Origin: Aspergillus flavus
Taxonomy: Eukaryota; Ascomycota; Eurotiomycetes; Eurotiales; Aspergillaceae
Direction: 5' to 3'
Assembly (NCBI RefSeq): GCF_009017415.1
Contig: NC_092410.1
Coordinates: 124,001 to 188,000, forward strand
DNA length: 64,000 bases
Shown here in pieces: positions 31,733-49,390 of the stretch. A program made the position numbers and the translations under genes. The notes below the pieces were generated by a model, which saw only the letters and a list, made by a program, of their open reading frames with translations, was not told where the DNA came from and did not search any database. How positions within the stretch are numbered: the first letter of the stretch is position 1; each line of letters begins with the position of its first letter.

Positions 31733-33397
31733 GAAAAGAGGTACTAATGGCTAAACCGAAATAAAAAGAATCAGATCTAGATATTGGGGTTTCAAGTGGG
31801 TGGGTGGAAATACCCAAGTGAGAATAGGGCGGAAAATATACGCCGATGGCTATTTGTTTCCAATATCGAATCCACAACAAATACGGGGTGTTATGGACTT
31901 ACTTTTAGCACACAGCTTGCTGTATTAGTCGTAGCTGTGCAATAGTTTGCACGGCAGTGGGTCTAGTTGCCTAGGCCGCGTGTGTGTGATAGGTACATTC
32001 AAACTCAGATCTGCGGATCTTCTATGAACTGCTACCCTTTGAAATGCCAGCTGGCGCGAGGTTCAGCTGCTCCACAGTGCGCCTCGCGGGATAACTCCGA
32101 TATGCACGGAGGAAAGACAGCTCTGAGGTCGAGCAAACAAGGCATTTTCCACTGACATATGGTTTGGGTGTGCCCTCCGAGTTACTCCTCTACACGTGGC
32201 CCGAAATATCACTCAGTAGTCCGGTAGCAGAATCGAATATGGGAAAAAATATTCCTGAAGTGGCTTCTGTATTCATCGATTAGGGAACAAGGGTCTGTTT
32301 CGCGTGGGAAACTAGGAAGCTGATCTCCACGTCGCATGGACCACCACAATCATGGACACAGCTAGAGCTCACGCGGGTACGTAGAAGAGACCGTCAATCA
32401 AACTATGTAGAGTGTTTTGAGCTCGTTCCAATGTGTTTTGGTGGGTTTTCTTGGGACCGACCAGGCGCAAAATAGGCCGACTCCCGTGTTAAGAAAATCA
32501 GGACTTTCCACGCGAATTGCACAAGGTTCAACTAGTCTACACTTTCTCGCTAGCAGCGTCGCTATTGGAAAAGTAAGCCGAGAGAAGAATCCCTCAGACC
32601 TTTCAGCCGTCGGTACTAGACGGTGCAGCATCTTCTGGCGGCGTTAGCTTCGGCATGCTCAGTCTTCAGCTTTCTTTTTTGGGCTACAGTGTTCCACCTT
32701 GGAAGCTAATCATGCAAGCTAGTCACCGAAGCGAGTTCAGCTCCCCCACAGCCAAGTGGAGCCATCCAGGATCATCGCGATCTCAGCCCCGAGATTCCCG
32801 GCGGTCGAATCAAGATCGGTTCACCGTGCCGTGGGGAAGTCTCTTGAAAGCTCTGGAATTCAGTTAGTGATAGTATTATACTGGTACTTGAGTGAGTAGA
32901 GGTGTGATATATCTTCGTGAGTGGCATATTATATTTAATGACGAAAAAACTTTAAGCGAGATCGTTCATCAACCAACCAAATTGGCTCGAAGCTGACGTG
33001 GATCTCTTGATCGATATTGTGAGATAGCAAGGTCAATGCCCCTAGTTCATCTGCATATCATTGCTGTTTATGGAATCTCGATGAATACACTGTCCTATCA
33101 ACTCTCTTCCTCACTTCACAGTCCTACCCCGGATTCCACCGCACGACTAAAGTCTATCCTGAGATCTACAAGGATATAGCTCTCATGAATTCAAGCTCAG
33201 CTCGCCACATATCTTTTTTGCCCTTCCGTCGCGATGATCGTCGATTTTAAGTTCATGGCGACGACGCAAAGAGAGAAGATGGTCCATTTTGTGGATCTTG
33301 CAAAAGGCGTCTGCCATTCTGGACGGAGCCAGGTGCCAACACGTTGGAATCTCAATCTCTTCAGCTTCGCATTCAGCTTCGCAACATACGGCAGTGG
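31733..33397. other. Intergenic, no gene seen
   Basis: This should hold the promoters of two divergent secreted-protein genes. Short frames at 31967-32155, 32398-32647 and 32655-32867 show no motif. Nothing else was recognised. Confidence 0.4.
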
Positions 33398-33415
33398 CCA
33401 ATGCGAATATAAATA
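33398..33415 (+). promoter_or_regulatory. CCAAT box and TATA box of the cysteine-repeat gene
   Basis: CCAAT at 33398-33402 and TATAAATA at 33408-33415 lie 82-69 bp upstream of the ATG at 33484, followed by a C/T-rich leader. This is a standard strong fungal promoter arrangement and argues that translation starts at 33484 rather than in the open frame upstream. Confidence 0.55.
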
Positions 33416-33483
33416 ACATTACCTCCCTGTCCTTTTATTCCCTACTTCGCACCACCATCCATTTCTCCTTCAAATCGGTCATC

Positions 33484-35565
33484 ATGGTCAAAGCCAATGG
33501 CCTGTTGGCCCTCCTCGTTGGCATTTCTGCATACCATGTAGAAGCCCGAGGCTCCTCCCGTGGTAAAACCAAGTACACCCTCGATAATATCCTCCCTTTG
33601 GCAGACCCGAGCTCCGGCCTTGTTAAGTGTTGCCCGGAGGGAACCGAATTCGACGGCCAGGCCTGTGTCCTTGGTGTACCTAGCTGTCCGGAGGACTTCA
33701 TTCGCAAGGATAACAAGTGTGTCTCGAAATTCAAGCCTATCTGCCCCGATGGAAGCGAATATGACGGCAACCTTTGTGTGTCTGATGGACTCCCCACTTG
33801 CCCGCCCCCTACCACCCTAAAGGGTAACTCGTGTGTGGCTGGACCACCAACCTGCCCTTCTGGCCTTGAGTACAACGGCAAGGTATGTCAATCGAAGCAA
33901 CTCCCGGCGTGCCCTACAGACTACACCTTCAATGGCAAGACCTGTGTCAGTGTCAAGAAGCCTCAATGTCCTGAGGGACTGAAGCTTGGCGACGGGAAGT
34001 GTATCAGTGTCGGCTCTCCGGTCTGCCCTGCTGGCGCAGAGTACAACGAAAACCTTGGACTGTGTGCCTCTGTCGTTGAGCCTGGGTGCGATGAAGGAAG
34101 TCAACTCAAGAACGGCGAGTGCGTGTCTGATACTCCACCATCCTGTCCCGAGGGCGGCAATTTCAACCCTACCACAGCGAAATGTACCTCTGCCGAGAAA
34201 CCGACCTGCCCTCCTGGCTCCGAACTGGATCTACACTCTCAGAAGTGTGTGCTTAGTGAGGAGGCTGACTGTCCTCCCGGTAGCGTCCTCTCTACTGATC
34301 TTGCTTCTGGTGTTGCCCGTTGCTGTCCTAATGGTATGGCTTGGAATGGTGACGTCTGTCTCTTCGAAAGTGATTCGAGCGGCAAATGCCCCCCTGGCCT
34401 CACTCAGGTGGGCAAGTACTGCCACAAGCAAGCTACCAAGATTCCCCAATGCCCTCCTGGCGCGAAGCTGGATGGTAGCCGCTGTGTTCTGACCGAGCTT
34501 CCTGAATGCCCTCCAGGTCACATCCTCGAAGGATCCACTTGTGTTATGATCGAGAAGCCGGAATGTCCCCCTGGTTTAACACTGTCCGGGGGCAACTGCA
34601 TTTCGACCATTGAAATTAGCTGCCCGGCTGGAACCAGGTTCGAGAAGGGTGTTTGCACCAGCGTCACCCCACCCACCTGTGAGGACGGATTCGTTTTTGA
34701 CGGCACTAACTGCGTCTCCACCACCCACATCCCCATTTGTCCTGAGGAGGGCCACACTTTAGACGGCGAGGAATGTCTCATTCCGCTCATGCCCACCTGC
34801 CCTGAAGATACAGCCTTCGATGGTACCCGTTGTGTTTCCACCATCTCTCCTTCCTGCCCGTCCGGCTCTGTCCACAATGGTCAGGGCGACTGTCTGACAA
34901 CCTCCGTCCCTCAATGCCCTCCAGGATCTACTTTGCTTGGTGGTGGCTGCGTCGTTGGCGTTCCTGCCTGCCCCAAGGGCACAGTTTGGGACTCCAAGCA
35001 GTGCATCAGTCCCAAGGATCCCGAATGTCCCCCAGACCACAAGTGGAGCAACGGAAAGTGTCTCAACCTAGTTACCGTGGAATGTGAGCCCGGCTACGCC
35101 TTGGTCAATGGCGAATGTGTCTCCGACAGTAAGCCAGAGTGTGCCCCAGGAACCACTTTCAACGGTCAGGAATGTGTTGGTGACGTACCCAACTGTCCCG
35201 AGGGACTTGTCTTTGATGGGGAGGACTGTGCCCATCCCGAGGAACCTGCTTGTCCCGCTGGAATGAAGTTCAACGGCAAGAAGTGTGTAGCTGAGAAGCC
35301 GCCTTCTTGCCAGTCTGGCACCACCTTCGACAAGAAGACGAAGGAATGTGTGGCTGTTGAGCCCCCTCAGTGTCCCCCCGGTCAGGTCTTCAATGGCAAG
35401 AACTGTGCCCTGGCATCTGGTGACTGCATGAGCTTCGAGTACTGTCCTGTTATGGGCGGTCTTTCCAACGGCGGCCTTACTACCGGTGGCCCTTCTACCA
35501 GTGCCGAGGAATGTCCTGAAGGAACTGTGTATGATAAGTATACCGGCATGTGTGCTGATTGGTGA
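33484..35565 (+). CDS. Secreted protein of about 31 tandem short cysteine repeats
   Basis: A single exon of 693 residues. It has a signal peptide (MVKANGLLALLVGISAYHVEA) and a short linker. About 31 tandem units of 18-22 residues follow, with consensus CPxGxxFxGxxCVxxxxPx, for example CPAGMKFNGKKCVAEKPPS. Each unit has two cysteines, expected to pair, plus two units with an extra CC. The last units are separated by a Gly/Ser/Thr linker (GGLSNGGLTTGGP) and the protein ends after a final CPEGTVYDKYTGMC. The repeat resembles cysteine-rich wall or coat proteins of other eukaryotes in style only. A role as a surface, adhesive or structural protein is inferred. Codon use is strongly biased to C-ending codons, as in highly expressed genes. 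No membrane anchor is visible. Confidence 0.88.
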   Translation: MVKANGLLALLVGISAYHVEARGSSRGKTKYTLDNILPLADPSSGLVKCCPEGTEFDGQACVLGVPSCPEDFIRKDNKCVSKFKPICPDGSEYDGNLCVSDGLPTCPPPTTLKGNSCVAGPPTCPSGLEYNGKVCQSKQLPACPTDYTFNGKTCVSVKKPQCPEGLKLGDGKCISVGSPVCPAGAEYNENLGLCASVVEPGCDEGSQLKNGECVSDTPPSCPEGGNFNPTTAKCTSAEKPTCPPGSELDLHSQKCVLSEEADCPPGSVLSTDLASGVARCCPNGMAWNGDVCLFESDSSGKCPPGLTQVGKYCHKQATKIPQCPPGAKLDGSRCVLTELPECPPGHILEGSTCVMIEKPECPPGLTLSGGNCISTIEISCPAGTRFEKGVCTSVTPPTCEDGFVFDGTNCVSTTHIPICPEEGHTLDGEECLIPLMPTCPEDTAFDGTRCVSTISPSCPSGSVHNGQGDCLTTSVPQCPPGSTLLGGGCVVGVPACPKGTVWDSKQCISPKDPECPPDHKWSNGKCLNLVTVECEPGYALVNGECVSDSKPECAPGTTFNGQECVGDVPNCPEGLVFDGEDCAHPEEPACPAGMKFNGKKCVAEKPPSCQSGTTFDKKTKECVAVEPPQCPPGQVFNGKNCALASGDCMSFEYCPVMGGLSNGGLTTGGPSTSAEECPEGTVYDKYTGMCADW

Positions 35566-45918: not shown

Positions 45919-47664
45919 ATGAAAACCTTCCCTGAAGCGGACGTTATCTGGTGGAATGCGAGCTCCTACTACGTTCGTTGTCCGTTCTGCGAAGAGGTTC
46001 ATCACCACGGCATAAACTGGAAGACGAACAGGTTGAGGATTTCACATTGCGAGAAGATGGAGACTTACCTTTGCTGCTTCCCCATTGGCGATCAAGGTCA
46101 GATTGCGTATGAAATTGACAAGAGACGAGGCCGATGTACCAATATTTGTGTATCGCCTGATAGTGATACTGAGGATGACGATGTTGATCATCTGGCGATT
46201 GAGTTGGCTCAGAAGGCTACGATTGCAGCGCAGAGGGCGGATACATATGCGGATATCGATGAAGATTCGAAGGAAATTGTCACCATCGATCCAGGGCACG
46301 GCATTGAGTCGTTTGAACAAAAGAGAATTTTTGAACCAATAGACGACTGTGTTAACGGGGATACAAGAGCGGTGGAGAGATACCTGGAGACTTCTAGTGA
46401 GGCCCAGCTGTTCATTCGAGGGCGAGACTACGATGGCAAAACAACTCTCATCAGCGCAGCAGCTAAGCCGAGCTCGGAGATGGTGTCGCTTCTTATTAAA
46501 CACGGGGCTGAGGTCAATGCTGTTGACAAGCGCGGAAGGAGTGCCCTTATGGAGGCAGCGCTCTTTGGTCGGGCCGAAAATGTAAAGGTTCTCTTGCAAA
46601 ACGGTGCAGACAAAAACACTCGGGATAGCGATAACAGAATGGCTATTGATTTCGCTCGAGACCATTACAAGAATCGAAGAGAGAGATACGAGCGCACCGG
46701 AGGCAACCTGATATCTTCATCCAATCGACTGCCAGGCCGTCACGAAGACACATTCAAAAGGGACATTGATCGTCAGGATATCGTACGGCTTTTCAGCGGA
46801 GAGAACCGAAAATCAAAGATTGTTTTTGGGAGCCCTCCCACGTTATCAGGGTCTAAGTCCTACTCTTTCACACCCTCTCCGAGGCAGGACTCGCTAGTAT
46901 TACACGGCCCGATAGAAGAGTATCCAATCAGCAGCAGCTATAAGACGGTGGCGCGGTTGGAACGAGGCGGAAAATTCCCATCCATTGGCGCTATGAGCGG
47001 ATGGGCACATGGTTCGGTGCAGTCCCTCAGGGTTGATGGCCGACAGTGGACGGATGATGTCTTTTACATCTCGAATGTAGCGGGCCATGCCTTAGCTTCT
47101 CACAGCTGTGATCAGGGTAAGGACGGACGATACAATGCATGTCACGCCGAAAAGCAGTTGATAGCATACTTCATCGATCGCCATGTTTTCCTTCCACGCG
47201 ACGCTGACCCGGACTCGGAACTGGAAAAAAGGATCGAATGTATAGAGGATGAGCTTCAGGAATTCCTGTCTGGCACTGAAATAGGCCGCAAGGTGGCGTC
47301 CCTGAGAAAGAGAAAGGAGGATCTAAAACATCAGATATTTGATGGGGACGAAAAGCTCGTCGGCAAGCATGATGAGATCAAGGCACTAAATTTGGAGCTC
47401 AAATCTGTTGAAACAGCCCTAAATCTGCTAATCGCTGACTCCCAAGCACGACCACTCTTAAAGCTAGAAAGCCAACTAAAGGTTCTGAATAAGCGACTAG
47501 ACAGACATGCTGACCTGACTGAGATGGCTAGTGCGCCACCACCGGCTTCATTGGTCGAGGCGGTCATATTGATCAGCTCACGTCCTTGTCAAGACTGCAT
47601 TGTGTTCACGGACAAAGTCAATAAACGCTTTGGGCTATCCATAGAGTTATTCGCGGCACTTTGA
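45919..47664 (+). CDS. Ankyrin-repeat protein with C-terminal nucleic-acid-deaminase-type domain
   Basis: A single exon of 581 residues. The N-terminus (1-60) is a possible zinc-binding module: CPFC at 21-24, HHH, HCEK, CC. Ankyrin repeats follow at about 170-250 (DYDGKTTLISAAAKPSSEMV, SLLIKHGAEVNAVDKRGRSA, VLLQNGADKNTRDSDNRMAI). The C-terminal domain has the cytidine-deaminase superfamily zinc ligands: HAEK at residues 409-412 and PCQDC, whose cysteines are residues 557 and 560. Between them lies an unusually long insertion of about 145 residues with heptad character (LEKRIECIEDELQEFL, KALNLELKSVETALNLL). Comparable ankyrin-linked deaminases related to bacterial toxin deaminases are known from comparative work on fungi. 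Substrate (DNA, RNA or free base) unknown. All active-site residues are intact. Confidence 0.82.
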   Translation: MKTFPEADVIWWNASSYYVRCPFCEEVHHHGINWKTNRLRISHCEKMETYLCCFPIGDQGQIAYEIDKRRGRCTNICVSPDSDTEDDDVDHLAIELAQKATIAAQRADTYADIDEDSKEIVTIDPGHGIESFEQKRIFEPIDDCVNGDTRAVERYLETSSEAQLFIRGRDYDGKTTLISAAAKPSSEMVSLLIKHGAEVNAVDKRGRSALMEAALFGRAENVKVLLQNGADKNTRDSDNRMAIDFARDHYKNRRERYERTGGNLISSSNRLPGRHEDTFKRDIDRQDIVRLFSGENRKSKIVFGSPPTLSGSKSYSFTPSPRQDSLVLHGPIEEYPISSSYKTVARLERGGKFPSIGAMSGWAHGSVQSLRVDGRQWTDDVFYISNVAGHALASHSCDQGKDGRYNACHAEKQLIAYFIDRHVFLPRDADPDSELEKRIECIEDELQEFLSGTEIGRKVASLRKRKEDLKHQIFDGDEKLVGKHDEIKALNLELKSVETALNLLIADSQARPLLKLESQLKVLNKRLDRHADLTEMASAPPPASLVEAVILISSRPCQDCIVFTDKVNKRFGLSIELFAAL

Positions 47665-48022: not shown

Positions 48023-49310
48023 TTAAAAGGCCTCCAATTCATAGCTCGCATACATAAACGGCCCCGCGCCCTTAACATCATTCTGCACCACGGGAACAGA
48101 TATGTAATACTGCATACAGTCAGTAAAGCCTTGGTGCAATGATATGGTGCTCAGTAAACATCAGGCTTACCTCGAAGCTCCCGTTGCTGCTTAGACTTCC
48201 CACCTCCACCGTTCCCTCCCAGTTCAACGTCCCGTTGTCATTTTTACTCACGAACCTGTCGACAAGCAGCTTATACCCCTTGTCGGCCACCTGAGAATAT
48301 TCACTTTCCTTTAGGAATCCGTTCCGAATACCCTTTAAGAATCCATATGTGAACATGGCAGACCCACTACTCTCAATGTAGTTCCTGGGGTCGCTCGGGT
48401 ATTGATCGTTCATGATCAAATACCACCCACCACTTTCATCCTGAGCTTGTTTAAGCGCTTGCGCTAGTTTCTGGAATCGGCCCAAGTTGGTCTCCCAGCC
48501 TGGGTGGGACTTGGGAAAGTAATCCAGGATATCCAGAAGGGACATGAAATACCAGCCCAGGGCGCGATTCCAGACGAGTGGAGCAGCACCGGTTTCAGGA
48601 TCTGCAAGCTTTTGTTACTTTTCTCGTTCGATCAAACTTGAGGATAATGGGAGGGAACGAAACAACGATTTGTGAGATGTAGATTACATACCAGCCCAAA
48701 CAGCAGCTTTACTGTAATCAAATCCATGGACAAGCAGCCCATCCTCACGCAAGCAATGCTCCTCGATCAAGTCAAACTGGAGCATAATATCATCCCACGC
48801 AGTGCTGTTATCTGCATCGAACCATGCAGTGTACAGCGCGTAGAAATTAGTCGACATGTAAATTCCATCCAGCCACATCTGGTTGGGATAGGTAGGATCA
48901 CGATGCCAAAGCCCACCTCCCTCATTGCGGGGCGTTATATCAATCTGTCGCCGGAGAGTATCGGCTCCTAGCTTGAACTTCTCCTGACTAGTGGCGGCCC
49001 AAGCAGCCAGGAAGTTTGTACCGATCCGTAGATCGTCAAGGGAGATTTTGTCGGTGAGGTTATAGTCGATCAACTCGCCTGAATCGCTCACGACGCCCGA
49101 GAGTTGAGACTCAATGAAGTCTAGATATTCGGCGTTGTTGGTTTTGTTGTGAGCGAGTTCAATGCCACGATAGAGTACACCGTAAGCGTAGTTCCGGGAT
49201 ACGGGCACCGATTTGGACAACCAAGATGAAGCCATCCATTCTGTGTAGTTGTTGCTGGACGCCAGTGTTGTACCTGCCGTCGCGGCGAGGAGGGCTATAG
49301 ATGATCGCAT
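48023..49310 (-). CDS. Secreted glycoside hydrolase family 105 (unsaturated rhamnogalacturonyl hydrolase)
   Basis: Three exons (49310-48692, 48601-48171, 48109-48023) give 378 residues. A signal peptide (MRSSIALLAATAGTTLASS) is followed by an alpha/alpha-barrel. Family motifs are RIGTNFLAAW, WHRDPTYPNQMWLDGIYMS with the catalytic Asp in WLDG, HGFDYSKAAVWADPETG, and APLVWNRALGWYFM. Further on come YPSDPRNYIESSGSAMFTYG and the C-terminal helix YASYELEAF. The enzyme removes unsaturated uronic acid from oligosaccharides made by pectate or rhamnogalacturonan lyases outside the cell. The fit along the whole length is good and nothing is broken. Confidence 0.93.
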
Positions 49311-49390
49311 CTTGAGGAGCGGTGATTAGACTAGTATGATAGCTAATCCTGCTCTTTCTGTCATCAGTAGCTGTCTATGTACTTTACATC

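What the first reader, a model, noticed from the sequence alone, without database searches (positions are those of the whole stretch)
45919..47664. Ankyrin-deaminase with the zinc motifs split by a long coiled-coil insertion
The sequence shows a single-exon protein with CPFC zinc-ribbon-like N-terminus, ankyrin repeats, and HAE plus PCxxC deaminase ligands. In the deaminase superfamily these two motifs are normally about 25-40 residues apart; here about 145 residues with heptad character lie between them. Related fungal deaminases are known to be linked to bacterial toxin deaminases. A host nuclear gene of this kind could edit DNA or RNA, act in conflict or take part in genome-defence mutation. 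This is the best candidate in the window for an undescribed enzyme system.
Basis: partly seen in the sequence, partly recalled or inferred. Interest (0 to 1): 0.75.

Follow-up and report, generated by a model that had tools for sequence, protein, structure and literature searches.

The report
Fungal ankyrin–deaminase with helical insertion
A mould gene encodes an ankyrin-repeat enzyme from a known deaminase family related to a bacterial DNA-mutating toxin; a long bundle of helices separates the two halves of its zinc site in the sequence, but the predicted fold still closes, and related fungal proteins carry the same kind of insertion.

The parts
45919..47664 (+). 581-aa ankyrin-deaminase ORF (stop included)
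   Evidence: A. flavus record P0002 of the same length, 8 of 581 residues different
45979..46050 (+). N-terminal Cys/His motif, residues 21-44, putative zinc module
   Evidence: C21/C24/H28/H30/C44 complete in 78 of 80 rows ungapped there, of 104 aligned; zinc binding inferred
46330..46704 (+). ankyrin repeats, residues 138-262
46942..47205 (+). deaminase core part A, residues 342-429 (strands 344-348 and 356-359, HAE helix 410-422)
   Evidence: SsdA_C 85.6 bits over 358-415; models
46996..47004 (+). SGW motif, residues 360-362 (SsdA/BaDTF2 hallmark)
   Evidence: 94 of 104 rows; hallmark per PMC7901873 passages
47143..47151 (+). HAE motif, residues 409-411 (presumed zinc ligand and catalytic Glu)
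   Evidence: H409 and E411 in 104 of 104 rows
47206..47538 (+). helical insertion, residues 430-540
   Evidence: models; much shorter in short-branch rows and bacterial loci
47215..47355 (+). insertion helices 1 and 2, residues 433-452 and 454-479
   Evidence: DSSP on model, block pLDDT 77-97
47368..47532 (+). insertion helices 3 and 4, residues 484-506 and 508-538
   Evidence: DSSP on model, block pLDDT 86-95;
47539..47661 (+). deaminase core part B, residues 541-581 (strand 547-552, helix 558-571, strand 574-579)
   Evidence: models; alignment to SsdA ends at residue 581
47584..47598 (+). PCxxC motif, residues 556-560 (presumed two zinc ligands)
   Evidence: C557 and C560 in 102 of 104 rows each; Pro556 in 58

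Best explanation
The gene encodes an intracellular fungal cytosine deaminase of the SsdA_C (SsdA/DYW-like) family. An N-terminal Cys/His module and ankyrin repeats act as the recognition part; the C-terminal deaminase acts on nucleic acid, most likely single-stranded DNA. The insertion lies between the HAE helix and the strand that leads to PCxxC. Both zinc motifs sit at the active-site ends of those elements, so the insertion leaves from the opposite face and forms a helical stalk that makes protein contacts (partner or dimer) without splitting the zinc site. Shown by computation: family, motif conservation, closed predicted fold, helical insertion, long forms gathered on one branch. Inferred: zinc binding, catalysis, intracellular location, ssDNA preference (about 0.5), stalk as protein-contact element (about 0.55), conflict or self-defence role (about 0.4).
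Against: No activity, expression or localisation data. The far-face placement of the insertion follows from topology, not measured geometry. The insertion is less conserved than the core, and its net charge ranges from -13 to +5, so a basic face is not excluded. Foldseek matched SsdA only weakly (best E 5.5e-3, none at E <= 0.001). No conflict-type gene among the 10 neighbouring open stretches scanned.
Confidence: 0.6

Rival explanations
1. The enzyme is an RNA editor like plant DYW proteins, with the ankyrin part choosing the target and the insertion helping regulation.
Against: No PF14432 hit for P0001 at E <= 1, and only 12.2 bits (cut-off 24) for one of ten relatives scanned. No C-terminal DYW-like ending and no later CxC in 104 rows. 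BaDTF2 proteins carry SGW in the insertion where DYW proteins have PG (PMC7901873 passage), and SGW is here. No PPR family in the Pfam list for P0001. Targeting and editing were not tested.
Confidence: 0.25
2. The insertion is an autoinhibitory or activating gate: it responds to ankyrin ligand binding and switches the deaminase, as the DYW gating domain does in plants.
For: A regulatory insertion inside the deaminase fold has precedent in plant DYW (PMC7611903 passages). Residues D475, L480 and G482 near the tip of the insertion are fairly conserved (0.78, 0.88, 0.83 of 69-70 long rows).
Against: The DYW gate bridges strand 2 and helix 2; this insertion lies between helix 2 and strand 3, which topology places on the far side.
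Confidence: 0.2
3. The enzyme has lost catalysis and the fold survives as a scaffold.
For: The protein ends after the fourth strand of the model: C557 to end is a median 25 residues in 102 aligned rows against 41-55 residues before the stop in 10 of 11 bacterial loci, so the fifth strand of SsdA seems missing.
Against: H409 and E411 are invariant in 104 rows and both Cys are kept in 102 each, distant rows included; a dead enzyme would hardly keep them. (17 shorter or near-identical proteins were not in that count.)
Confidence: 0.1
4. Artefact: the two motifs match by chance, and the helical stretch is an unrelated domain or an unspliced intron.
For: Several database gene models lack parts of this stretch (P0044, P0057, P0063, P0067).
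Against: The stretch is in frame, and 84 of 201 scored proteins have a spacing of 140-159; the predicted fold closes around it.
Confidence: 0.02

Closest known systems
SsdA of Pseudomonas syringae (BaDTF2 interbacterial deaminase toxin; PDB 7jtu, 9c63)
   Different: SsdA has 21 residues from H to C (counted from the alignment), five strands and an immunity protein; here 148 residues, no fifth strand after the fourth in the model, ankyrin and Cys/His parts in front, and no immunity gene seen in the few ORFs scanned
Fungal ankyrin SsdA_C / 'DYW family' proteins (Pfam PF24120; e.g. A. nidulans AN3871, P0101)
   Same: Same architecture; 34-87% identity to the other rows of the alignment; long-branch members such as P0101 (spacing 154) have the same kind of insertion
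   Different: Nothing essential within the long branch; the 26 short-branch rows have 45-93 residues from H to C
Plant PPR-DYW RNA-editing deaminases (PDB 7o4e, 9kfx)
   Different: Insertion at another place (strand 2 to helix 2; passage); C-terminal DYW and CxC absent here; ankyrin instead of PPR repeats

Membership tests
Pfam SsdA_C (PF24120) | profile score above the curated cut-off | tested here: met
   85.6 bits against 27, residues 358-415
BaDTF2 (SsdA-type bacterial toxins) | HAE, CxDC and SGW motifs together | tested here: met
   present in P0001; HxE, CxDC and SGW in 87 of 104 rows; hallmark per PMC11789416 section 13
BaDTF2 (SsdA-type bacterial toxins) | five-stranded core with C-terminal S4-S5 hairpin | tested here: not met
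   models show strands 344-348, 356-359, 547-552, 574-579, and the protein ends at 581; prediction only; strands at 316-336 in the full-length model could stand in, not tested
BaDTF2 (SsdA-type bacterial toxins) | link to interbacterial antagonism, immunity gene nearby | tested here: inconclusive
   no immunity-type family in 10 of the 60 open stretches of 130 residues or more; 50 not scanned
DYW deaminases (PF14432) | profile score above cut-off | tested here: not met
   no hit for P0001 at E <= 1
DYW deaminases (PF14432) | C-terminal DYW-like tripeptide and CxC second zinc motif | tested here: not met
   0 of 104 rows each
Nucleic-acid cytosine deaminases | deaminase fold | tested here: met
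   confident domain model superposed on SsdA and DYW structures
Nucleic-acid cytosine deaminases | H and two C at one zinc site | tested here: inconclusive
   implied by the single superposition; coordinates not available, distances not measured
Nucleic-acid cytosine deaminases | cytosine deamination of DNA or RNA | not testable with these tools
   needs an enzyme assay

The most novel reading that the evidence does not exclude
A fungal sensor-effector in which a Cys/His plus ankyrin half recognises self or non-self molecules and a helical stalk inside the deaminase fold brings deaminases together, so that a mutagenic DNA deaminase acts as executor in fungal incompatibility or in defence against selfish elements, much as its bacterial relatives act between cells.
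Probability: 0.2. Interest if true: 0.75.

Novelty: new variant of a known kind. Interest (0 to 1): 0.4.

Why it matters
Fungi hold many ankyrin proteins with SsdA-type deaminase cores; in the papers found here I saw only a passing statement that fungal members take part in organellar mRNA editing and a general proposal of conflict roles, no test of one. The family offers a natural series of insertion lengths (20-21, 44-99, 140-159) in one fold, which suggests that the back face of the deaminase can carry large additions and gives matched natural proteins for activity tests. If the enzymes mutate DNA, fungi would have a mutagenic enzyme class at hand.

Tried and rejected
PF14424 (Toxin-deaminase) in the own genome: no match, and none in the 14 control genomes, so it shows nothing. 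NCBIfam, PADLOC and PHROGs gave only matches in the ankyrin part or weak ones in the coiled-coil part. Fold searches with the full-length model listed ankyrin proteins in the rows shown, so the deaminase part was modelled alone. A conflict-gene neighbourhood was considered; none seen in the 10 of 60 stretches scanned. Nucleic-acid arm for the insertion: not favoured (mean net charge -4.4). Short-insertion relatives show only sub-threshold matches to other deaminase families: OTT_1508_deam 16.8-18.0 bits in three of ten (cut-off 27), APOBEC_N 12.7-15.2 in two (cut-off 25), MafB19 13.4 in one (cut-off 27), DYW 12.2 in one (cut-off 24).

Within-group variation: the first count showed the N-terminal half more variable than the C-terminal half in four close comparisons; the alignment then showed apparent gene-model errors in P0005 (about 114-151) and P0006 (about 19-57). 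With those stretches masked for all rows, the excess remains for P0004 (18/185 against 6/319, p 1.2e-4) and P0006 (26/185 against 21/319, p 6.8e-3), but not for P0005 (9/185 against 10/319, p 0.34) or P0002 (2/185 against 1/319, p 0.56). P0004 has no named organism. P-values are uncorrected, the pairs are not independent, and the split at 262/263 was chosen after seeing per-domain counts. Neighbour-gene control (tannase): A. flavus in one cluster of 45 members, next cluster 86%; coarse only, because clusters hide their members.

Tree: quick method, 32 of 101 inner branches open, long label needs 7 changes (5 forced by starred branches), so the long forms are not one clean clade.

Literature: (listings) showed no paper that by title or abstract start describes this insertion; passages were read in PMC3482391, PMC7901873, PMC11789416 (33, and section 13 in 35), PMC7611903 and PMC10532568 (not used). 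Iyer et al. 2011, the most likely place, is not held, so prior description there is not excluded.

Full report
WHAT IS THERE. The ORF 45919-47664 (+) is open for 581 codons. The window's genome is 37.7 Mb in 8 contigs; the nearest protein record is an A. flavus protein of the same length (P0002), 8 of 581 residues different, so the source is A. flavus or very near it (inference). The SsdA_C profile finds one place in this genome. The 55 other places that match P0001 do so between its residues 101 and 268, the ankyrin part and its edges; 75 of 156 candidates were scored, and introns are not bridged.

FAMILY. Pfam gives SsdA_C at 85.6 bits and ankyrin families above cut-off; no DYW family at E <= 1. 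A profile of 11 C-terminal domains finds SsdA in solved structures (7jtu E 4.7e-8; 9c63 E 6.1e-7); the other five rows are two cytidine deaminases, two HepN toxins and a plant DYW protein at E 0.1-0.83. A search with residues 320-581 found 123 proteins at E <= 0.001, of which 120 are listed; where the listing names an organism it is a fungus. A second search with the 11-domain profile found 222 at E <= 0.01, 120 listed.

MOTIFS. I aligned 104 of the 121 proteins then held (window included; 17 near copies, fragments or shorter models left out, some of which lack the C-terminal motif). H409, E411 and H422 are invariant; C557 and C560 are each present in 102; Pro556 in 58. SGW is present in 94; SGW, HxE and CxDC together in 87; a C-terminal DYW-like ending or a CxC after the zinc motif in 0. 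The N-terminal C21/C24/H28/H30/C44 set is complete in 78 of 80 rows not gapped there. H422 seems special to the fungal proteins: none of 11 bacterial loci has His at that offset, one has His two residues earlier. Of the bacterial loci 10 of 11 have CxDC and 9 of 11 an SGW upstream.

SPACING. H to C is 148 here. Of 229 proteins held after two searches (window included), 201 could be scored by pattern: 44-99 in 110, 100-139 in 5, 140-159 in 84, 190-199 in 2. Eleven bacterial loci from the one genome-contig scan have 20 or 21; the scan used two conserved peptides and confirmed 11 of 43 matches, so it sees only close relatives. A quick tree of the 104 rows, built without the insertion columns, puts 72 long, 3 middle and 3 short forms on one side of a branch (SH-aLRT 96) and 26 short forms on the other; the long label still needs 7 changes, and the root is at the midpoint. 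The tree cannot tell gain from loss; the bacterial state suggests growth in fungi. The six shorter rows inside the long branch lack inner parts of the insertion; false introns in gene models may explain some.

INSERTION. Four helices, 433-452, 454-479, 484-506, 508-538. Mean identity to this protein in 71 long rows is 0.45, below the core (0.70 and 0.66) and the ankyrin part (0.62). Leucines and some turn residues are kept (L490 72 of 72; L480 0.88; G482 0.83), much of the rest varies, net charge averages -4.4 with a range of -13 to +5. The insertion follows the C-terminal end of the HAE helix and precedes the strand whose far end carries PCxxC. In the deaminase fold both motifs sit at the active-site ends of these elements, so the insertion should leave from the other face (inference from topology and recalled knowledge of the fold). 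The plant DYW gate lies elsewhere, between strand 2 and helix 2 (PMC7611903 passages).

LOST STRAND. SsdA has five strands (PMC7901873 passages). The model has four in the core, and C557 to the end is a median 25 residues in 102 rows, range 6-60, against 41-55 before the stop in 10 of 11 bacterial loci and 10 in the eleventh, whose locus lies at a contig end. Strands at 316-336 in the full-length model might stand in; not tested.

HOW IT WORKS. Most likely a cytosine deaminase on single-stranded nucleic acid, DNA before RNA, guided by the Cys/His and ankyrin parts, with the helices as a contact stalk. SsdA deaminates ssDNA, dsDNA less, and RNA only residually in vitro (PMC7901873 passages). 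The role is open: earlier authors propose intra-specific conflict, defence against selfish elements or incompatibility for fungal deaminases of this origin (PMC3482391 passage). The 10 neighbouring stretches scanned are sugar and MFS transporters, GH88, tannase, a PAN match and one without a match and give no support.

A LEAD. With two stretches masked for gene-model errors, the first 262 residues differ more than the rest between P0001 and P0004 (0.097 against 0.019) and P0006, A. parasiticus (0.141 against 0.066), but not significantly for P0005, A. flavus AF70 (0.049 against 0.031), or P0002 (0.011 against 0.003); six more distant relatives show ratios of 0.71-1.06. This may reflect selection on, or recombination in, the recognition half. 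P0004's organism is unknown and no DNA of relatives was available.

VERDICT. Real, well conserved and correctly read as a deaminase; a long-insertion variant of a known fungal family. The insertion and the missing strand were not seen described in the listings and passages looked at, with the key 2011 paper not held.

Noticed in passing
45919-46704 against 46705-47661: Zinc/ankyrin half more variable than the catalytic half within the A. flavus group in 2 of 4 close comparisons after masking (P0004, P0006); not in P0005 or P0002, nor in six more distant relatives.
   Followed up: partly
47584-47661: The modelled deaminase core ends after its fourth strand; bacterial relatives run on 41-55 residues past the first Cys in 10 of 11 loci, the aligned fungal-type rows a median 25.
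   Followed up: partly
47182-47184 (H422): His invariant in 104 of 104 aligned rows, absent at that offset in 11 of 11 bacterial loci; role unknown.
   Followed up: partly
P0005, P0006, P0044, P0057, P0063, P0067 (relatives' proteins): Database gene models of relatives look mis-spliced or cut inside this gene; lengths from such models need care.
   Followed up: partly
48123-49325 (-): Two ORF pieces match Glyco_hydro_88, probably one gene with an intron.
   Followed up: no
33238-35562 (+): 775-residue open stretch without a Pfam match at E <= 0.001.
   Followed up: no
46042-46665 (-): 207-aa ORF antisense to the deaminase gene; probably a shadow of coding sequence.
   Followed up: no
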